From Hyphomicrobiales bacterium (lineage in GTDB: Bacteria; Pseudomonadota; Alphaproteobacteria; Rhizobiales; Rhizobiaceae): 64,000 nucleotides of DNA. Under the pieces are notes generated by a model, which was not told the origin of the DNA, ran no database searches, and saw nothing but the letters and a program-made list of their open reading frames with translations. The stretch covers positions 62,001 to 126,000 of the forward strand of contig UCMW01000008.1 of NCBI GenBank assembly GCA_900473745.1, written 5' to 3'. Positions 1-54,272 of the stretch are shown here, piece by piece. The first letter of the stretch is position 1; each line of letters starts with the position of its first letter. Both the position numbers and the translations under genes were made by a program.

Positions 1-459
1 ACCCAAACGGGCAACCTCCTACTGGACAAGGGCGAGCGCGACCTGTCCTGGCTGAACCGTGCCCATGGCGAGCAACTGGCCCTGTGCCGGGAATTGGAGG
101 AGATCGCCGACTCCTTGCCGGCAAGCATCAACCGTCAGAAATGCATCTATGCGGCCAAGGCACTGGGGCCCCTCATCAAGGGCATCCATCACTACGAGGA
201 AACCGTCCTCTTCCCTATGCTCCAGGCCAAGCCTGACGCGACCGAGACCCTCGGGCCTACGATCGAGCGGCTGAAATTCGAGCATTGCGAGGACGAGTGT
301 TTTGCCGAAGAGCTGACCGATGCGCTTCTGAAGCTCGGCTCCGGCGAAAGCGTCAACATGGAGGCCGTCGGCTACATGTTACGCGGCTTCTTCGAAGGCA
401 TGCGGCGACACATTGCTTTTGAAAGAGAGCATCTGCTTCAGGGGTTCATGGACCACTGA
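1..459 (+). CDS. Hemerythrin HHE-domain protein (5' truncated by window edge)
   Basis: The reading frame is open from base 1 to the TGA at 457-459, so the true start lies outside the window; a TTG at 94 is internal and is not needed. The 152 visible codons carry the spaced His/carboxylate pattern of hemerythrin-like cation-binding proteins: His22 (numbering from base 1), HHYEE at about 63-67, FEHCEDE around His95, and HIAFEREH around 137-144. Such four-helix bundles bind a non-haem diiron site and sense or buffer oxygen, NO or iron. Lying near hemN and fnrN it may belong to oxygen physiology, but that is inference. It converges on the PAS gene at 530. Confidence 0.75.
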   Translation, partial: TQTGNLLLDKGERDLSWLNRAHGEQLALCRELEEIADSLPASINRQKCIYAAKALGPLIKGIHHYEETVLFPMLQAKPDATETLGPTIERLKFEHCEDECFAEELTDALLKLGSGESVNMEAVGYMLRGFFEGMRRHIAFEREHLLQGFMDH

Positions 460-47513: not shown

Positions 47514-48680
47514 TCATGACAACGGATGGATGACCGGAGCACGGGTCGAATCCAGCGCTTCGAAGCTTTTGGCCGGGAGCGGCCCGGCCGTCATCAAGGT
47601 GAAGTCGTAGCCGCTCGGCTGGTCGGGTCCGAGCACATATTGCCGGTGCATCCGAAGAAAATCGCGGCGGTTCTTCTCGTAGCGCTCAGGCGACATCGCG
47701 TGTTTGAAACGGACGAAAACCAGCTTCGGCTGCGGCGCATCCGGATAGCCGGACAGTGCCACTGTGTGGCACTTGTAGAGGTGGATCGGGTCGGTCAGGC
47801 ACTGGATGTCGAACCAGTCGATGGCCTGGCTGCGCGCGACGCTTCCGATACGACGGCGCAGGTCGATTGCGCTCGACAACAGACTGCACTGGAGAGCCGC
47901 CCCGCCCAGCGTGACGAAAACGATCCGCCGTCCCCCTAGAACGTCAGGTGCTTTTTCGAGCAGGCGACCGACGACGGACAGGGCAAAATTGGCCCCCATG
48001 CTGTGCGATGTGACCAGGATTTCGTCCGAAGGCTGCTTGAGCGCAGCAATCGCCTGATCTGCCACAGTCTCGATGAAGGATGCGACCTCCGACCGGTTCT
48101 CGGCAACGGCAACGGCGAGCCGCCAGTCCGCCAGCAGATGCAGCACATGATAGCGATCCGAGAGCCGAAGGACACCATAGCGAAAGACGAGGGCGCCGGC
48201 AGGCACGGTGAGCAGGAACCACCAGGACGACAAGTCGAACGTTGACGGAATGGCCGCGATGTTGACCCCGAGTGCCAGACCGGCGGCGAGAAACAGGAAG
48301 GGGAAGAGAAAGAACAGGCCGAAACGCCAGGCATGGCGAAAATAGCCGAAGGCTCCGCCCTGCCGCACCACGTCGAAGCCTGCCTTGAAGCCCTTCGCAA
48401 TCTGCAGCCAGACCGGCTCGGAGCGCATCGCGGTGATCAGGTCGTTGTGGTCGAACACATGGATATCGGAACGCGTCGCCCAGCCGGCCACCTCGGCATC
48501 CACCGGAAAGTGCGCGCCCGTTTCATCGACGGAGAGCGCGCCCACATCGAAGCGGGCCTGCCAGATCCGGGCAGCCTGGGCAGCAGAGCGCTCATAGCGC
48601 TGGCGGTGGGCCTCTGCATTGAGGGGTTCGAAACCCGGGAAATGCAGGACGATGCGGCTGTGGATCATGAAAGCGGTCAC
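47514..48680 (-). CDS. Membrane-anchored alpha/beta-hydrolase-like protein (paralogue A)
   Basis: About 388 residues (GTG start 48680, or ATG 48668). N-terminal soluble part (~1-115), then two hydrophobic hairpin-like segments (about 118-140 and 150-172) beginning WRFGLFFLFPF, then a C-terminal hydrolase-like domain with nucleophile elbow VTSHSMGAN (Ser227) and later LTDPIHLYKC (295-304). The same order, WRF-x-FLYPF, GHSTGG and LTDIINFYKC, occurs in the gene at 53067, showing they are paralogues. It probably acts at the inner membrane on a lipid or thioester. No named family recognised; catalytic His and Asp are not certain. Confidence 0.65.
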   Translation of the reverse strand: MTAFMIHSRIVLHFPGFEPLNAEAHRQRYERSAAQAARIWQARFDVGALSVDETGAHFPVDAEVAGWATRSDIHVFDHNDLITAMRSEPVWLQIAKGFKAGFDVVRQGGAFGYFRHAWRFGLFFLFPFLFLAAGLALGVNIAAIPSTFDLSSWWFLLTVPAGALVFRYGVLRLSDRYHVLHLLADWRLAVAVAENRSEVASFIETVADQAIAALKQPSDEILVTSHSMGANFALSVVGRLLEKAPDVLGGRRIVFVTLGGAALQCSLLSSAIDLRRRIGSVARSQAIDWFDIQCLTDPIHLYKCHTVALSGYPDAPQPKLVFVRFKHAMSPERYEKNRRDFLRMHRQYVLGPDQPSGYDFTLMTAGPLPAKSFEALDSTRAPVIHPLS

Positions 48681-48790
48681 TCAATCGACGGCAGGCGGCC
48701 GCAGGTGGCGCTTGCTAGACGAGATTTGCGCTGATTTAAAGAGCGTATGGAACAAAACCATCCAGAACCATGGGTGCAAGAAGGATAAAC

Positions 48791-49021
48791 ATGGCGGATC
48801 TGCTCGGAAACATCGTCAAGGACGTCGTCGAAGGCGTCCTCAAGGAAATCCTGAAGAAGTCGACCCGCAGTGGCACGACGCGTCGGCGCAAGCGTCAGAC
48901 CCGTTCGACAACCACCGGCCGTTTAGTGCGCAAGACGAGGAAACGGGTGAAGGCGCCGGCACGCAAGCAGGTCAGCCGCCGTCGGACCGCCGCCAAACGA
49001 AGCCGCCAGCGGAGCCGTTAA
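48791..49021 (+). CDS. Small very basic protein of unknown function
   Basis: A 76-residue protein. Residues 1-24 form an amphipathic helix (MADLLGNIVKDVVEGVLKE) and residues 25-76 are extremely rich in Arg, Lys, Thr and Ser, so the C-terminal part would be strongly positive and possibly nucleic-acid binding. ATG 48791 is set by AAGGAT at SD distance; a start seven codons earlier lacks one. It lies alone between a divergent hydrolase-like gene and grxD. Confidence 0.65.
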   Translation: MADLLGNIVKDVVEGVLKEILKKSTRSGTTRRRKRQTRSTTTGRLVRKTRKRVKAPARKQVSRRRTAAKRSRQRSR

Positions 49022-49127
49022 ATCAGGCATTGCCGCAAACTCGCCACTGGCAAAAGGCGAGCTGTGTTGCTATTTCTACGGCACATCGAAGCTGCCGCCT
49101 TGAACGGCATGTGAAAGGAAGAATGAC

Positions 49128-49460
49128 ATGAGCGCCCACGAATTCATCGCAAACGAAGTGAAGACCAATGACGTGGTCCTGTTCATGAAGGGCAGCCCGC
49201 AGTTCCCGCAGTGTGGCTTCTCCGGCCAGGTGGTCCAGATTCTCGATTACCTCGGGGTGAACTACAAGGGCGTGAATGTCCTCGCAGACATGGAAATCCG
49301 TGAAGGCATCAAGGAATATTCCAACTGGCCGACCATTCCGCAGCTCTACATCAAGGGCGAATTCGTCGGCGGCTGTGACATCGTGCGCGAGATGTTCCAG
49401 GCGGGCGAGCTGCAGAAGCATTTCGAAGACCAGGGCATCGCCGTCCGCGGCGCAGCCTGA
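49128..49460 (+). CDS. grxD: Monothiol CGFS glutaredoxin Grx4/GrxD
   Basis: A 110-residue monothiol glutaredoxin with the CGFS active site (Cys29 in FPQCGFSGQ), the Lys of FMKGSP, the cis-Pro in [19 protein letters not shown]. It binds a glutathione-ligated 2Fe-2S cluster as a homodimer or with BolA (bolA at 47223) and passes clusters or iron signals. SD AAGGAAGA precedes the ATG. An inverted repeat at 49500-49525 follows. Confidence 0.95.
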
Positions 49461-49499
49461 CCCAATCTGCCGCAAGGCGCTTAAATTTCCCAGGTGATG

Positions 49500-49525
49500 A
49501 AGGCGTTGTTCCCAAGCAACGCCTT
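49500..49525 (+). terminator. Hairpin between grxD and the MFS gene
   Basis: AAGGCGTTG (49500-49508) and CAACGCCTT (49517-49525) form a perfect 9-base stem with an eight-base loop. No T-run follows. It likely ends or weakens grxD transcription before the transporter gene. Confidence 0.55.
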
Positions 49526-49549
49526 CATGCCGTTCCAAGGTATCACTTC

Positions 49550-50797
49550 ATGTCAGATTCATTACAGTCCGTCCCCAAGACCCTGGGGAGCATGGGACGC
49601 GCCGAATTCATCGCGATGATGGCCTTCCTCATGGCGCTCAACGCGCTTGCCATCGACATCATGCTGCCAGGCCTCCAGGAGATCGGGGCCGCACTCAATG
49701 TCGAGAACGAAAACCACCGCCAATATGTCATCTCCGCCTATCTCATCGGCTTCGGCGTCGCGCAGCTCTTCTACGGACCGATCGCCGACCGTTTCGGCCG
49801 GCGCATGCCGATGATCGTCGGCCTGGCGATCTATGTCGTCTCCTCGCTCGCCGTCGTCTTCGTACCGTCCTTCGAATCGTTGCTTCTGCTGCGCTTCATC
49901 CAGGGCATCGGCTCGGCCGCGACCCGCGTCATCACTGTCTCGATCGTGCGTGACGTCTTCGGCGGCCGCCAAATGGCGGAAGTCATGTCGCTGATCATGA
50001 TGGTCTTCATGGTCATCCCCGTCGTGGCCCCCGGAACCGGCCAGGTGATCATGCTCTTCGGCGACTGGCACTGGATCTTCGTCTTCATGGCGGTGATCGC
50101 CGTGATCGTCGGTGCCTGGATGTATGTCCGCCTGCCAGAGACACTCGCCCCCGAAGACGTACGCCCCTTCACCCCGAAGGTCATCATCGACGGCTTCCGC
50201 ATCGTTCTGACCGACCGCGTGGCGCTCTGCTACACCATCGCCAGCACCTTCATCTTCGGTGCGCTCTTCGGGTTCATCAACTCCGCGCAGCAGGTCTATG
50301 TGGGGATCTACGGCCTCGGCGTCTGGTTCCCGGTCGCCTTCGCGGCGGTTGCTTTGTTCATGGCCCTATCCTCCTTCGTCAACGCCAGGCTCGTCGGACG
50401 CTTCGGCATGCGGAAGCTCTCGCATGGCTCGCTGCTGGGCTTCATCGCGATCAACCTGATCTGGCTTGTGGTGCAGATTCTTGGCCCACAGCCGATGCCG
50501 TTCTTCCTGTTTATCGGCTTCTTTGCGCTGGCAATGTTCCAGTTCGGCTGGATCGGCTCGAACTTCAACTCGCTTGCGATGGAGCCGCTCGGCCACGTGG
50601 CCGGCACGGCATCGTCGGTGCTCGGCTTCATGGGAACGATCGGCGGATCGATCATCGGAGCCGCCATCGGCCAGGCTTTCGACGGAACCGCGCTCCCGAT
50701 GGTCGCCGGCTTCTTCGTGGTCGGCGTCATCGGCCTGATCTTCGTCCTGATCGGCGAGAAGGGGCGCCTCTTCCAGGCGCAGAACAAGCCGGTCTGA
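49550..50797 (+). CDS. Bcr/CflA-family MFS drug transporter
   Basis: A 415-residue, 12-helix MFS transporter of the Bcr/CflA type. After AIDIMLPGLQEIGAALN (TM1 end), the motif A region reads GPIADRFGRRMPMI; RFIQGIGSAATRVI is in TM4; the C-terminal half has GTASSVLGFMGTIGG. Such proton antiporters export drugs, dipeptides or sulfonamides; the substrate is not predictable. Followed by an intrinsic terminator at 50826-50852. Confidence 0.88.
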   Translation: MSDSLQSVPKTLGSMGRAEFIAMMAFLMALNALAIDIMLPGLQEIGAALNVENENHRQYVISAYLIGFGVAQLFYGPIADRFGRRMPMIVGLAIYVVSSLAVVFVPSFESLLLLRFIQGIGSAATRVITVSIVRDVFGGRQMAEVMSLIMMVFMVIPVVAPGTGQVIMLFGDWHWIFVFMAVIAVIVGAWMYVRLPETLAPEDVRPFTPKVIIDGFRIVLTDRVALCYTIASTFIFGALFGFINSAQQVYVGIYGLGVWFPVAFAAVALFMALSSFVNARLVGRFGMRKLSHGSLLGFIAINLIWLVVQILGPQPMPFFLFIGFFALAMFQFGWIGSNFNSLAMEPLGHVAGTASSVLGFMGTIGGSIIGAAIGQAFDGTALPMVAGFFVVGVIGLIFVLIGEKGRLFQAQNKPV

Positions 50798-50825
50798 CGA
50801 AACGCCCTGACTGCCGCAGGTAGCG

Positions 50826-50852
50826 AAAGGCCCGGTCGATGCCGGTCCTTTT
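50826..50852 (+). terminator. Intrinsic terminator after the MFS gene
   Basis: AAAGGCCCGG (50826-50835) pairs with CCGGTCCTTT (50842-50851) with one mismatch, loop TCGATG, followed by TTTTG. It lies between convergent genes and, read on the other strand (AAAGGACCGG then CCGGGCCTTT), could also serve the monophosphatase gene. Confidence 0.65.
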
Positions 50853-50858
50853 GTCCGT

Positions 50859-51686
50859 TCAGTCTACGGTAAAGATCCGCTCCCGCAATTCCTGCCAGGC
50901 GTCAGGATCGGCTGCGACCAGCAGGCCACCCGCCGTGTGGTGCGGCAGGTATGGAGAACCATCGAACCGCGCCACATGCGCGCCTGCCTCCTGCATCATC
51001 AGGGCACCGCCGAGATGATCCCAAGGCATCAGCTTGTTGTACATGGCGAAATCCATATGACCCTGGCCGAGCAGGCGGTACTCATGGGCCGCACAGCGAT
51101 AGCTGGTAAAAAGCCGGACTTCGGCAAGGTTCGAAAGGATCTTGCGGCGCATCTCAAGATCGAAGAAGCCGGTATTGGCAATGCCGATCATCTGTTCGAG
51201 CGGACCACTCGGCCGCATGAACATCTGCTCCTGGGCGCCATCCGTCCGATAGAGCCAGGCGCCCGATCCCTTTTCGCAAAGCGCCCAGTCATTGCCGATC
51301 GGATCATAGATCAAACCAGCCACGGTTTCGCCCTTGGACACGACGGCGAGCATGACGCCGAAGAGGCTGAGCCCGGAGGCGAAGTTGAAGGTTCCGTCGA
51401 TCGGATCGACGATGACCGCCAGATCGGCGTCCTTGAGGCGATCGAGGAGTGCAGGATCAGCAGCAACCGATTCCTCGCCGATGAACAGGGCGTCAGGCAT
51501 CAGACCCTCGATGCCCTTGCGGATCAGACGCTCGGCTGCCTCGTCGGCCTCCGTGACGAGGTCGATTGCCTCGGTCTTCATCCTGATGTCGCCGTCGCCG
51601 AGATTGCGAAAGCGCGGCAGGATCTCCTCGACGGCAGCCTCCTGCAGGAGATTGGCAAGGGCGGCGATATCGATGGCGGCAGTCAT
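50859..51686 (-). CDS. Inositol monophosphatase-family protein
   Basis: A 275-residue Mg-dependent phosphatase of the IMPase superfamily. Metal ligands are in GEES (about 69-72) and DPIDGTFNF (about 93-101), and WDHLGGALMMQEAGA completes the site. The substrate may be inositol phosphate, fructose-bisphosphate or PAP; subgroup not resolved. ATG 51686 has GGAGAG at SD distance; upstream in-frame start at 51734 is rejected. Convergent with the transporter. Confidence 0.88.
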   Translation of the reverse strand: MTAAIDIAALANLLQEAAVEEILPRFRNLGDGDIRMKTEAIDLVTEADEAAERLIRKGIEGLMPDALFIGEESVAADPALLDRLKDADLAVIVDPIDGTFNFASGLSLFGVMLAVVSKGETVAGLIYDPIGNDWALCEKGSGAWLYRTDGAQEQMFMRPSGPLEQMIGIANTGFFDLEMRRKILSNLAEVRLFTSYRCAAHEYRLLGQGHMDFAMYNKLMPWDHLGGALMMQEAGAHVARFDGSPYLPHHTAGGLLVAADPDAWQELRERIFTVD

Positions 51687-51864
51687 GAAATCTCTCCGGT
51701 GTGAACTAACTCTTTGGCAATCGAATACGGTCAAAGATGTCCAACCCTTCTAGCCCGCACCGAACGGGGAAGTATAGACCGGATGGCACGGCAAGCCCTG
51801 TTGTCAGCCAGCGTGAAACATGCATGAATTCGAAACAACTGCTTTTTCAGGATCTCCTCCCGAC

Positions 51865-52482
51865 ATGATCTCCAGGCGCGCCCTTCTTTCTCATGCATCG
51901 CTGATCCTTGCCGCTTCCGTCCTGCCAGCCGAAGCGGCAAGACCGAGGAAGCCGAAGCTTGCGACCGGCCAGGTCTATCTCTTCCGAGGCTTCGCCAATA
52001 TCTTCTCAACGGGGCTCGACACGTTGGGCAAACAGCTCGCCGCGGATGGCATCAAGGCAGAAGTTCTGTCGCTGCCGAACGCCCAGGCCTTCGCCCGCAG
52101 GATCGCGGAGCGTTATCGAGCATCGAAGGATGCCCGCCCGATCGTGCTGATCGGACACTCGCTCGGCGCGGACATGACCTTTTCCGTGGCAAGCGCACTC
52201 CAGCCGCTGAAGATCCCGGTGGGACTGATTCTGAGTTTTGACCCGACGGGCAAGGGGCCGGTCCCCGGCAACGTCAAGAAGACGCTGAACTTCTACACCG
52301 GCGGCGAGAATCTGTGGTCACCCGTCCTGCCGGCACCCGGCTTCAAGGGCGAACTCGCCAACATTAACCTGCGCCAGGGCGAGACCGCCATCAAGGGCAT
52401 CGGCCACTTCAACATCGACAAGAATCCGGCGCTCCATGACCGGGCGATCAAGGAAATCACGCAGGCGCTGCGCAAGCGCTAA
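51865..52482 (+). CDS. Exported alpha/beta-hydrolase-fold protein
   Basis: A 205-residue protein with a signal peptide at about 1-23 (MISRRALLSHASLILAASV, cleavage after AEA). The nucleophile elbow VLIGHSLGADMT is present, and a late His lies in IKGIGHFNIDK; an acidic partner is probably in LSFDPTG. It would be a periplasmic esterase, lipase or thioesterase. The ATG at 51865 is chosen because it gives a proper signal peptide; ATG 51820 adds 15 non-signal residues. Convergent with the methyltransferase-like gene, six bases apart. Confidence 0.7.
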   Translation: MISRRALLSHASLILAASVLPAEAARPRKPKLATGQVYLFRGFANIFSTGLDTLGKQLAADGIKAEVLSLPNAQAFARRIAERYRASKDARPIVLIGHSLGADMTFSVASALQPLKIPVGLILSFDPTGKGPVPGNVKKTLNFYTGGENLWSPVLPAPGFKGELANINLRQGETAIKGIGHFNIDKNPALHDRAIKEITQALRKR

Positions 52483-52488
52483 CGCCTC

Positions 52489-53070
52489 TCAAAAGATCCC
52501 GGGAACGAGCCGCTTCGTGCGGGCGCAATACGCGTCGTATTCGCCGCCGAAGGTGTCCCGCATCATGGCCTCTTCGCGAGACTGGCGCACGGCATAGAGC
52601 GCGAGCACGGCGACCAGCCCTGCAAGGCCTGCGATCCAATTGGGAATGAGCAGCGCTTGGGTCACGCCCCAGAGCAGGAACGACGCATACATCGGATGCC
52701 GGACATGGGCATAGACGCCCTGCGTGACCAACTGATGGCCTTCACGGACTTCGAGCGTCACCGACCAGTTCTTGCCGAGATCCTTGTGGCTGCGCCGGAA
52801 GAGCCAGAGAAAGGCGATGCCGGTGAGAGTACCCAGTATCACCGGGACAATCCCCTGCCCGCGATCTGCAAAACCATCGAAGACGTCCAGCCGCCAAGCG
52901 ACCGGCATCGCCACGAGCGCGAAGGTGCAGAAGGCAAGAAGCGAAATGTCCAGCGTAGAGCGGCGATCGACGCGGGTCTTTTGACGGCGGGCCCGACGCA
53001 TGGCCGGATAACGCATCGCGCACCAGGTGACCAGCATCAGAGCCCAGAGGATGAAGGAAACGCGTGTCAT
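52489..53070 (-). CDS. Isoprenylcysteine carboxyl methyltransferase-like membrane protein
   Basis: A 193-residue polytopic protein of the ICMT/PEMT-like family: about five membrane helices and the SAM-binding C-terminal signature VTQGVYAHVRHPMYASFLLWG, with RHP-Y at about 124-128, then EEAMMRDTFGGEYDAYCARTKRLVPG. Bacterial members methylate lipids or other hydrophobic groups; none of the eukaryotic CaaX substrates exist here. Its start overlaps the stop of the hydrolase-like paralogue B by four bases, so the two are translationally coupled and may modify the same molecule. Confidence 0.83.
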   Translation of the reverse strand: MTRVSFILWALMLVTWCAMRYPAMRRARRQKTRVDRRSTLDISLLAFCTFALVAMPVAWRLDVFDGFADRGQGIVPVILGTLTGIAFLWLFRRSHKDLGKNWSVTLEVREGHQLVTQGVYAHVRHPMYASFLLWGVTQALLIPNWIAGLAGLVAVLALYAVRQSREEAMMRDTFGGEYDAYCARTKRLVPGIF

Positions 53071-54272
53071 GATACTGCCTCTGCCGTTTTACCCGCCTCC
53101 GACGAAAGCGGAAGCGTGTCGCCTCTTACGGCCTCGATCGGTCGGGTGCCACAGCAGATCATGAAGAAATCATAGAAATAGCGTCGGCTGTTGGCCGAAA
53201 TGAACTGATAGTGAACCCGGAAGAAGTTCTTCTTCACCCGTTTGTAGGTGTCCCGTTCGAGCATTTCGCGGATGCGCACCTGCAACTGCCGCGGAAACAG
53301 GTCGCCGCGCTGGTGACTGAGGCCTGCGCGGGCATAGGGATCGCATTTGTAGAAGTTGATGATGTCGGTGAGCGCCTGGAACTCCGTCCACTTTATCCCC
53401 GGAGGACGCGCCAGTGCTTCAAGCCGCATCCGCGCCCGTTTTGCGGCCGGATGCAGGGCCACCTTGAGCGACGTGGATCCGACAGTGACCATCTTGAAGT
53501 CGACGGGCCTGCCCTCCTCCACCAGTCGCTCCGCAAGCTGGTGTGCGACGTCGAGGATGAGCGCGCCGCCCGTCGAATGCCCAACGAGCAGAACCTCGTC
53601 ATAGGATGCAGCCGACAGCCTCGTGGCGATCAGTCCCGCCCAGGCATCGATCCGGGCATCCATGACGGGACGGCGGCGATGCAGATGCTCGCGGCTAAAC
53701 GACCAGAGGTCCATGAGGTGGAAGACGAAATAGCGGCGGCCGACGAAGCGGCCAACGGCATAGGCGACCCCGACGCCGATCAACGCCGGCAGGATCGGGC
53801 CGCCGGGAAGCGGCAGAAATTCTGCCAGCCGGTAGGCAGCCGCTCCAAGCCAGGCGAAGAAGGCCAGCATGACGAAGGGATACAGGAAATAGAGCGCAAA
53901 GCGCCAGTTGGTGGCGAAGAAGCGGAACATCGTGCCGCTGAAGACATAGTCGAAGAAGGCGACGAGATAGGCAAAAAGCCGGACGACGAACGGCCGTGCG
54001 CCATCGTGTTTGACGATATCGTCGAAGCTCAGGAAGGTAATGTCGGACAGGCAGGTGCCGTCTGGGCCGCGATAGTCCGCAGTGGCCGTGGTGACCGCGG
54101 CCTCGGCCGTCTCCACCGGTGTGGCAAGTTTGGCCTCGACCGACCAGCACTTGCAAAAGCGCTCCATCTCGCGCCCGATGCGCCGGAAGAAGCCGGCGGC
54201 ATCGTTGCGTTCATACCCTCCGACGAGAAACACGGCACGCCTCGACACCGAAGGCTGAGTGACCTCAGACAT
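53067..54272 (-). CDS. Membrane-anchored alpha/beta-hydrolase-like protein (paralogue B)
   Basis: A 401-residue protein: opening RRAVFLVGGYERNDAAGFFRRI, membrane segments at about 97-117, 123-145 and 155-178 (including NWRFALYFLYPF), then a hydrolase-like domain with LLVGHSTGGALIL (nucleophile Ser233), LTDIINFYKCDPYA (301-314) and KKNFFRVHYQFI. It parallels paralogue A (47514) in order and motifs. The GGY block at the N-terminus plus a distant GHSTGG is odd for a plain hydrolase. Start ATG 54272 has GGAGTAGGA directly upstream. It overlaps the ICMT-like gene. Substrate unknown. Confidence 0.7.
   Translation of the reverse strand: MSEVTQPSVSRRAVFLVGGYERNDAAGFFRRIGREMERFCKCWSVEAKLATPVETAEAAVTTATADYRGPDGTCLSDITFLSFDDIVKHDGARPFVVRLFAYLVAFFDYVFSGTMFRFFATNWRFALYFLYPFVMLAFFAWLGAAAYRLAEFLPLPGGPILPALIGVGVAYAVGRFVGRRYFVFHLMDLWSFSREHLHRRRPVMDARIDAWAGLIATRLSAASYDEVLLVGHSTGGALILDVAHQLAERLVEEGRPVDFKMVTVGSTSLKVALHPAAKRARMRLEALARPPGIKWTEFQALTDIINFYKCDPYARAGLSHQRGDLFPRQLQVRIREMLERDTYKRVKKNFFRVHYQFISANSRRYFYDFFMICCGTRPIEAVRGDTLPLSSEAGKTAEAVS

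What the first reader, a model, noticed from the sequence alone, without database searches (positions are those of the whole stretch)
47514..54272. Two diverged membrane hydrolase-like paralogues, one coupled to an ICMT-like methyltransferase
Genes at 47514 and 53067 share an ordered set of motifs: a WRF-aromatic membrane entry, an HS(M/T)G elbow, LTD-I--YKC and a late Arg/Lys-rich K-N/F-x-R-x-H block. Neither matches a family I can name. The second overlaps by four bases an isoprenylcysteine-methyltransferase-like gene, so a hydrolase/acyl-transfer step plus methylation of a lipid carboxyl or thioester is conceivable. An exported hydrolase gene lies next door. This is the best candidate here for an undescribed pathway.
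Basis: partly seen in the sequence, partly recalled or inferred. Interest (0 to 1): 0.55.

Follow-up and report, generated by a model that had tools for sequence, protein, structure and literature searches.

The report
Membrane lipase-like enzyme paired with methyltransferase
Two related bacterial genes encode an unnamed family of membrane-bound lipase-like enzymes, and one of them sits in a widely conserved gene pair with a methyltransferase of a kind that acts on lipid-like molecules, which points to an unstudied way of making or trimming membrane lipids.

Summary
The genes at 47514-48680 and 53067-54272 (minus strand) are diverged paralogues (27% identity, E 5e-33), and the second overlaps an ICMT-type methyltransferase gene by 4 bp. 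Neither reaches a Pfam or NCBIfam cut-off. AlphaFold2 models (pLDDT 87-88) show an alpha/beta-hydrolase fold with an inserted helical hairpin. Ser, Asp and His triad candidates are kept in 141, 142 and 141 of 142 aligned members.

The pair is conserved: ICMT directly follows the hydrolase in 54 of 138 fetched loci (36 genera, 6 families). Of 32 order-level genomes with this ICMT, 23 carry the hydrolase beside it. A thioesterase-like gene accompanies 36 of the 54. Other branches pair the hydrolase with a cytochrome P450 (32 rows) or GT1-type glycosyltransferases, never at a locus with ICMT among the 138.

Best reading: a membrane lipid esterase or thioesterase whose carboxylate product is capped as a methyl ester. 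The closest studied parallel is rhamnolipid methylation by RhlM. Substrate, reaction order and membrane side are unproven; nothing here is tested at the bench.

The parts
47514..48680 (-). AHm1 (P0001): alpha/beta hydrolase paralogue, between bolA and grxD on the other strand; triad candidates Ser227, Asp297, His345
   Evidence: AF2 pLDDT 87.7; VIA best Z 10.8 to Nir2 DDHD domain. Only the first helix of its hairpin (window 121-139) reached 1.5 in the hydropathy scan
48000..48002 (-). codon of candidate nucleophile Ser227 of AHm1 (HSMG)
   Evidence: aligned with S233 of P0002, sequence
53067..54272 (-). AHm2 (P0002): alpha/beta hydrolase paralogue, first gene of the pair with ICMT; triad candidates Ser233, Asp303, His354
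   Evidence: AF2 pLDDT 87.0, pTM 0.88; VIA best Z 10.3
53733..53906 (-). predicted membrane hairpin of AHm2 (residues 123-180: helices 123-151 and 160-180)
   Evidence: DSSP of the model; hydropathy windows 125-143 and 160-178
53574..53576 (-). codon of candidate nucleophile Ser233 of AHm2 (GHSTG)
   Evidence: S in 141 of 142 members, C in one
53364..53366 (-). codon of candidate triad Asp303 of AHm2 (LTD)
   Evidence: D in 142 of 142 members
53211..53213 (-). codon of candidate triad His354 of AHm2 (RVH)
   Evidence: H in 141 of 142 members, one gap
52489..53070 (-). ICMT-type integral-membrane methyltransferase (P0003), 4-bp overlap with AHm2
   Evidence: NF040696 253 bits vs cut-off 160; PF04140 57 vs 24 bits; 4a2n E 4e-34 over residues 8-192
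52687..52701 (-). RHPMY motif (residues 124-128) of the ICMT-type enzyme
   Evidence: R, H, P, M, Y and the later E166 E167 identical in 55 of 55 aligned
51865..52482 (+). thioesterase-like alpha/beta hydrolase (P0004), convergent with the ICMT gene; export plausible, not shown
   Evidence: PF00975 34.0 vs 26.4 bits; relatives beside ICMT in 36 of 54 loci; no hydropathy window at 1.5 or more

Best explanation
AHm2 (53067-54272) and ICMT (52489-53070) are two consecutive steps of a membrane-lipid tailoring pathway. AHm2 is a serine esterase or thioesterase held in the membrane by a helical hairpin, most likely with its active site on the cytoplasmic side. It cleaves an acyl ester or thioester of an amphiphilic lipid and leaves a carboxylate. 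The ICMT-type enzyme next to it, which uses cytoplasmic SAM, caps that carboxylate as a methyl ester. The thioesterase-like P0004, perhaps exported, acts on the product or its acyl chains. AHm1 is a diverged relative that does the hydrolytic step without ICMT. Shown here: paralogy, predicted fold, conserved triad residues, conserved gene order and coupling, membership of the ICMT family. Inferred: hydrolysis as the reaction, the lipid substrate, the order of steps, the membrane side and the role of P0004.
For: Triad candidates S, D and H kept in 141, 142 and 141 of 142 members, from 15 family codes. Alpha/beta-hydrolase fold predicted for both paralogues; the listed solved folds are thioesterases, lipases and esterases, with LCAT among the 50 rows for AHm2 and a DDHD domain first for AHm1. 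ICMT lies directly downstream on the same strand in 54 of 138 loci, and the two frames can overlap by 1-4 bp in 36 of those 54 (the counting rule favours overlaps). 23 of the 32 order-level genomes with NF040696 over its cut-off have AHm beside it (compared by hand). Alternative partners fit lipid-like substrates: a P450 directly downstream of 32 rows, whose best solved relatives are a P450 of unstated substrate, plant LUTEIN DEFICIENT 5, CYP4B1 and, lower, BM3, and whose best NCBIfam models, all far under cut-off, are terpene oxygenases; GT1-type glycosyltransferases in 4 of 7 f34 loci and next to AHm in Methylorubrum extorquens CM4 and Polaromonas sp. JS666. Precedent: deletion of rhlM, an ICMT-family gene in a rhamnolipid operon, abolishes methylation of the lipid carboxyl and complementation restores it (PMC11069360, passages read).
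Against: No substrate, activity or expression data. Fold matches are middling (Z 8-11), and Foldseek gives no E of 0.001 or less. The membrane side is weakly supported: residues 181-401 hold 33 K+R against 24 D+E, but residues 1-122 hold 14 against 15; in P0001 the second hairpin helix does not reach 1.5 in the hydropathy scan. 9 of the 32 order-level genomes with this ICMT lack AHm beside it, though some of those contigs end close by. 87 of 142 AHm rows have no ICMT directly downstream, so methylation is not the general purpose of AHm. P0004 is on the opposite strand from ICMT in the window and in 5 of 36 loci with both, and is missing from 18 of 54 ICMT loci within the fetched flanks.
Confidence: 0.42

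Rival explanations
1. AHm is an acyltransferase of the RhlA type: it uses the same Ser-Asp-His site to join acyl groups and so builds the amphiphilic acid that ICMT methylates, as RhlA does before RhlM.
For: The partner classes of the RhlM pathway (alpha/beta hydrolase, GT1-type glycosyltransferase, ICMT) recur around AHm, though in different genomes. [quoted passage not shown] MaoC hydratase genes converge with AHm in 6 loci of one clade.
Against: No RhlA sequence was available for a direct comparison; no RhlA-named model was hit in NCBIfam, but whether it holds one is not known to me. The hairpin is not a feature I know from RhlA (recalled). ICMT and GT1 were not seen at the same AHm locus among the 138 (GT1 sought with two seed proteins at E 1e-6).
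Confidence: 0.2
2. AHm and ICMT are eraser and writer of one reversible carboxyl methylation, like plant ICME and ICMT.
For: Arabidopsis ICME and its homologues are described as intramembrane esterase/lipase-superfamily proteins with a Ser-Asp-His triad that demethylate prenylated protein (PMC3017835, passages, and start of abstract). Tight coupling of the two genes would suit a balanced pair.
Against: AHm keeps its triad in branches without ICMT (P450, bolA/grxD and other neighbours), so a methyl ester made by ICMT cannot be its general substrate. The best Abhydrolase_3 match is E 0.074, under its cut-off. Bacteria of this group are not known to me to prenylate proteins (recalled).
Confidence: 0.12
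3. The genes are co-transcribed for general envelope maintenance and share no substrate; AHm is a house-keeping lipid esterase and ICMT methylates something unrelated.
For: AHm has several unrelated neighbours (dxs/tlyA block, bolA/grxD, ABC-exporter genes), and ICMT has other partners (acyltransferase-like gene plus SDR).
Against: The same order, AHm then ICMT, in 54 loci of 36 genera and 6 families, often with overlapping frames.
Confidence: 0.13

Closest known systems
RhlM rhamnolipid methyltransferase and its rhl operon (PMC11069360, passages read)
   Same: ICMT-family membrane enzyme encoded next to lipid-building genes; needed to methylate a lipid carboxyl
   Different: AHm has a predicted membrane hairpin and no tested relation to RhlA; whether P0003 falls in RhlM's sequence cluster was not tested; no locus among the 138 has ICMT together with a GT1-type gene
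MaMTase of Methanosarcina acetivorans (PDB 4a2n), NCBIfam NF040696
   Same: P0003 aligns with it over residues 8-192 (E 4e-34) and is over the NF040696 cut-off
   Different: methyl-accepting substrate of MaMTase undetermined (stated in PMC11069360); its gene neighbours were not looked at here
Plant ICME isoprenylcysteine methylesterases (PMC3017835, passages)
   Same: intramembrane Ser-Asp-His esterases acting opposite to an ICMT
   Different: carboxylesterase-type sequence; AHm2 is under the cut-off of Abhydrolase_3; no ICME sequence was compared
DDHD-domain phospholipase A1 family (DDHD1, DDHD2, Nir2)
   Same: best listed solved fold for the AHm1 model: Nir2 DDHD domain, Z 10.8, 242 residues, rmsd 4.8; late Asp, His, Asp (D303, H354 and D368, the last in 126 of 142)
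   Different: no PF02862 match in the window's genome at E <= 10; 8% identity; not among the 50 listed rows for the AHm2 model
Type II thioesterases and lipases (YbtT, ClbQ, A. fulgidus lipase)
   Same: alpha/beta-hydrolase core, Z 9-10
   Different: no membrane hairpin and no ICMT partner known to me (recalled)

Membership tests
alpha/beta-hydrolase superfamily | alpha/beta-hydrolase core fold | tested here: met
   AF2 models of both paralogues; the 50 rows listed in each VIA table are nearly all alpha/beta hydrolases by title, best Z 10.3 and 10.8; Foldseek E not significant
alpha/beta-hydrolase superfamily | nucleophile elbow and Ser, Asp, His in that order | tested here: met
   S 141/142 (C in one), D 142/142, H 141/142; geometry not measured
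Pfam Abhydrolase_6 / Lipase_3 / Thioesterase (for AHm1 and AHm2) | score over the curated cut-off | tested here: not met
   P0002 19.7 vs 26.3, 15 vs 22, 12.9 vs 26.4 bits; P0001 Thioesterase 14.2 vs 26.4
NCBIfam NF040696 protein-S-isoprenylcysteine O-methyltransferase (for P0003) | score over the curated cut-off of 160 bits | tested here: met
   253.3 bits
NCBIfam NF040696 protein-S-isoprenylcysteine O-methyltransferase (for P0003) | conserved RHPxY and late Glu residues | tested here: met
   identical in 55 of 55 aligned
NCBIfam NF040696 protein-S-isoprenylcysteine O-methyltransferase (for P0003) | prenylcysteine as methyl acceptor | not testable with these tools
   substrate needs an assay
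DDHD phospholipase A1 family | PF02862 profile match | tested here: not met
   no match in the window's genome at E <= 10; not among the 25 of 59 families shown for 64 members (a cut list)
DDHD phospholipase A1 family | DDHD-domain fold | tested here: inconclusive
   AHm1 model: best row 9jyx Z 10.8 over 242 residues, next 9.4; not among the 50 listed rows for AHm2
RhlA/RhlB/RhlM rhamnolipid pathway | GT1 glycosyltransferase and ICMT in the same locus as the hydrolase-fold gene | tested here: not met
   0 of 138 loci have both (GT1 sought with two seeds at E 1e-6, within the fetched flanks)
RhlA/RhlB/RhlM rhamnolipid pathway | RhlA-type sequence of the hydrolase-fold gene | not tested
   no RhlA sequence at hand
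Plant-type ICME | carboxylesterase (Abhydrolase_3-like) sequence | tested here: inconclusive
   Abhydrolase_3 E 0.074, 13.2 vs 25 bits; no ICME sequence compared
Pfam Thioesterase PF00975 (for P0004) | score over the curated cut-off | tested here: met
   34.0 vs 26.4 bits

The most novel reading that the evidence does not exclude
AHm is a new bacterial family of membrane-embedded phospholipase A-like enzymes, a distant fold relative of the DDHD phospholipases. It serves as a shared first step that different lineages couple to different finishing enzymes: a carboxyl methyltransferase, a cytochrome P450, a glycosyltransferase or a capsule-export machine. With ICMT it makes a methyl-ester-capped lipid not yet recognised in Hyphomicrobiales, and so gives the MaMTase-type ICMTs their missing substrate.
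Probability: 0.15. Interest if true: 0.75.

Novelty: new variant of a known kind. Interest (0 to 1): 0.5.

Why it matters
The RhlM paper describes ICMT-family enzymes as widespread in bacteria and RhlM as the first characterised bacterial one (PMC11069360, passages). A conserved hydrolase partner, with overlapping frames in many genera, turns 'what does this ICMT methylate?' into a two-gene deletion and lipid mass-spectrometry experiment. The hydrolase family itself reaches no Pfam or NCBIfam cut-off in the two window proteins, yet matches turned up in 50 of 297 genomes of the order sample and 45 of 398 of the phylum sample (lower bounds, since few candidates per genome were scored, and including the window's own genome).

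Tried and rejected
Sequence-only routes to a named family failed: Pfam and NCBIfam on P0001 and P0002; Pfam on 27 and 64 relatives (best E 2.5e-05 and 1.5e-06 to Abhydrolase_6, cut-off scores not shown for these); PDB sequences with single proteins and with profiles (best a 64-residue stretch around the elbow to a triacylglycerol lipase, E 0.0022); viral structures (nothing at E <= 0.001).

Rejected: that the pair is a local accident (22 of 22 nearest loci and 54 of 138 wider loci keep it); that the two genes are recent tandem copies (27% identity, separate branches); that they are foreign (GC 0.60-0.65 in every 4-kb step); that the P0004-type gene is required (18 of 54 ICMT loci lack it within the fetched flanks, which are short at contig ends); that AHm is specific to ICMT (32 P450 rows). 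A first gene-caller by longest ORF was discarded because of antisense ORFs and replaced by a codon-position GC score.

Limits of the counts: the genome searches scored only a few first-look candidates per genome (at most 4 to 15), so presence counts are lower bounds, and the order, class, phylum and family samples overlap. Short partial matches (about a dozen, e.g. G148:C11, G129:C18, G360, G620, G001, G1028, G1036, G1094:C61) were not fetched. AHm matches under about 300 residues were not put in the tree (one in L139). The junction count took the partner start nearest a 4-bp overlap, which favours overlaps. Partner labels follow a fixed precedence (ICMT, P450, MaoC, BolA/Grx, DXS) and distance limits. 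The tree is a quick LG+G4 tree with long-branch warnings and no inferred root. The AHm1 copy of L005 did not give a full frame in my start-picking and was left out of alignments.

Absences told only here: RhlA is not among the 50 listed rows of either fold table. Literature searches that did not show me this hydrolase family (listings, capped) are word searches of an open-access set and do not prove absence from print.
Full report
WHAT IS THERE. The window lies in a 5.2 Mb genome in 38 contigs; the best matches to P0002 among named genome records are Rhizobiales, Rhizobium, Allorhizobium, Agrobacterium and Peteryoungia entries. Two minus-strand genes, 47514-48680 (here AHm1, P0001, 388 aa) and 53067-54272 (AHm2, P0002, 401 aa), are paralogues: BLASTP 27% identity over 389 columns, E 5e-33. 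They are the only two copies in the genome at E <= 1. AHm2 overlaps by four bases the start of an ICMT-type methyltransferase gene (52489-53070, P0003). A thioesterase-like gene (51865-52482, P0004) converges with it. AHm1 lies 4.4 kb away between bolA and grxD, on the other strand from these.

NO NAMED FAMILY. P0001 and P0002 reach no Pfam or NCBIfam cut-off. The best weak matches are general alpha/beta-hydrolase models (Abhydrolase_6, 19.7 vs 26.3 bits, for P0002). Relatives, 27 and 64 of them, show the same general models. P0003 is over the cut-off of NF040696 (253 vs 160 bits), and its closest solved relative by sequence is MaMTase, 4a2n, E 4e-34. P0004 is over the Pfam Thioesterase cut-off.

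FOLD AND ACTIVE SITE. AlphaFold2 on alignments of 34 and 27 sequences gives mean pLDDT 87.0 and 87.7, pTM 0.88 for both. In AHm2 two long helices (123-151, 160-180) coincide with hydropathy windows above 1.5 and form a hairpin ahead of the elbow; in AHm1 only the first of the two reaches 1.5. The part of AHm2 after the hairpin holds 33 K+R against 24 D+E, the part before it 14 against 15, so a cytoplasmic hydrolase domain is a weak inference. VIA-align gives Z 10.3 to type II thioesterase YbtT for AHm2 (178 residues, rmsd 4.0) and Z 10.8 to the Nir2 DDHD domain for AHm1 (242 residues, rmsd 4.8; next row 9.4). Foldseek finds nothing at E <= 0.001. Across 142 aligned members the candidate nucleophile (S233 of P0002) is S in 141 and C in one (L113), D303 is D in 142, and H354 is H in 141 with one gap.

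DISTRIBUTION. Profile searches matched in 50 of 297 genomes of the order sample, 51 of 121 of the family sample, 11 of 385 of the class sample and 45 of 398 of the phylum sample. The samples overlap, include the window's own genome and some partial matches, and scored only a few candidates per genome, so the figures are lower bounds. I fetched 138 loci from 125 genomes (82 genera, 15 family codes). They hold 140 AHm rows of about 300 residues or more, and with the two of the window 142.

THE PAIR IS CONSERVED. In the 22 nearest loci AHm2 is followed by ICMT in 22 of 22 and a P0004 relative is present in 22 of 22 (one cut by a contig end); a separate AHm1 is in 14 of 22. In the wider set, ICMT lies directly downstream on the same strand in 54 of 138 loci (54 genomes, 36 genera, 6 family codes). 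The frames can overlap by 1-4 bp in 36 of 54, with a counting rule that favours overlaps. Read from the other side, 32 of 297 order-level genomes carry NF040696 over its cut-off, and 23 of these have AHm beside it (compared by hand). The other nine were read: one has ICMT with two P0004-type genes (L152); two have it in a run with a 2-oxoacid-dehydrogenase-type acyltransferase and an SDR (L153, L154), one of these also with a P0004-type gene; six have neither; three of the nine contigs end within a few kb. A P0004-type gene is in 37 of 138 loci, 36 of them with ICMT, on the ICMT strand in 31 of 36. A named example with all three genes in tandem is Pararhizobium qamdonense plasmid p2, annotated lipase, protein-S-isoprenylcysteine O-methyltransferase, lipase.

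OTHER PARTNERS. A cytochrome P450 gene directly follows AHm in 32 rows (26 of them f74), with a possible overlap of 1-4 bp in 23 of 32; a named case is Paracoccus ferrooxidans. No locus of the 138 has both ICMT and P450. The closest solved P450s to the L135 one are a P450 with no stated substrate (7wzl), then LUTEIN DEFICIENT 5, CYP4B1 and, lower, BM3; its best NCBIfam models, terpene oxygenases, are far under their cut-offs (180 vs 700 bits). GT1-type glycosyltransferases adjoin AHm in 4 of 7 f34 loci, in Methylorubrum extorquens CM4 (4-bp overlap) and in Polaromonas sp. JS666, where glycosyltransferases, AHm, a P450, a small gene and a second AHm follow each other. In the quick tree the six partner groups need 17 changes against a mean of 75 for shuffled labels, which shows only that they cluster. 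P0001 falls in a 13-row group of bolA/grxD and unpartnered rows that a starred branch (96) joins with ICMT-linked rows; the root is not known.

HOW IT MOST LIKELY WORKS. A membrane serine esterase or thioesterase frees a carboxylate on an amphiphile, and the ICMT-type enzyme beside it methylates that carboxylate. This joins three results: the conserved triad letters, the conserved order AHm-ICMT, and the alternative partners, which are of kinds that often act on lipids or terpenoids. The nearest studied parallel is RhlM: deletion of this ICMT-family gene abolishes rhamnolipid methyl esters, complementation restores them, and deuterated methionine labels them (PMC11069360, passages read). The paper calls RhlM the first characterised bacterial representative of its class and says the MaMTase substrate has not been determined. 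An RhlA-like acyl-transfer reading and an ICME-like eraser reading remain open. The eraser is less likely because AHm keeps its triad where there is no ICMT.

WHAT IS NOT SHOWN. No activity, substrate, expression or localisation. The DDHD link rests on one fold row; PF02862 has no match in the window's genome at E <= 10. That P0004 is exported rests on the look of its first residues; no predictor was run, no hydropathy window reached 1.5, and the 14 relatives' starts printed, all of family f20, are uncertain.

VERDICT. This is an unnamed alpha/beta-hydrolase family with a predicted membrane hairpin and a conserved ICMT partner: a new variant of known kinds of enzymes, of moderate interest, and directly testable.

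Noticed in passing
L131 7362-8612 and L190 4007-5179 (f36); L139 7301-8446 (f236); L259 9986-11206 and 12944-14146 (Polaromonas sp. JS666 plasmid 1): AHm genes beside ABC-exporter or capsule-synthesis genes (ABC2_membrane, ABC_tran, Capsule_synth PF05159). KpsS/KpsC build on (lyso-)PG (PMC7694667, passages), so a phospholipase there could supply the primer; speculative.
   Followed up: partly
L153 4681-7561 and L154 927-3203: The same ICMT without AHm, in a run with a 2-oxoacid-dehydrogenase-type acyltransferase and a short-chain dehydrogenase.
   Followed up: partly
L121 6685-7350, L151 776-1618, L153 6983-7561; profile hits in 8 of 138 loci: Small protein with no Pfam match at E <= 0.1 that recurs beside ICMT or AHm.
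   Followed up: partly
L113 7546-8682: The one AHm relative with Cys in place of the nucleophile Ser (GHCLGA), still paired with ICMT and a P0004-type gene.
   Followed up: no
window 48770-49021 (+): Small Lys/Arg-rich frame between AHm1 and grxD with a weak coding score. Its conservation was not tested: my query for it was in the wrong frame.
   Followed up: no
L104, L107, L216, L232, L239, L242: A MaoC-type hydratase gene converges with AHm in one clade of six rows (Pfam for the L104 one).
   Followed up: no
L110, L112, L114, L115, L118, L124, L126, L127, L174, L175, L177: dxs (isoprenoid precursor synthase) within the fetched stretch of 11 of 138 AHm loci, often with xseB and tlyA; perhaps just an old location, link to isoprenoid supply untested.
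   Followed up: no
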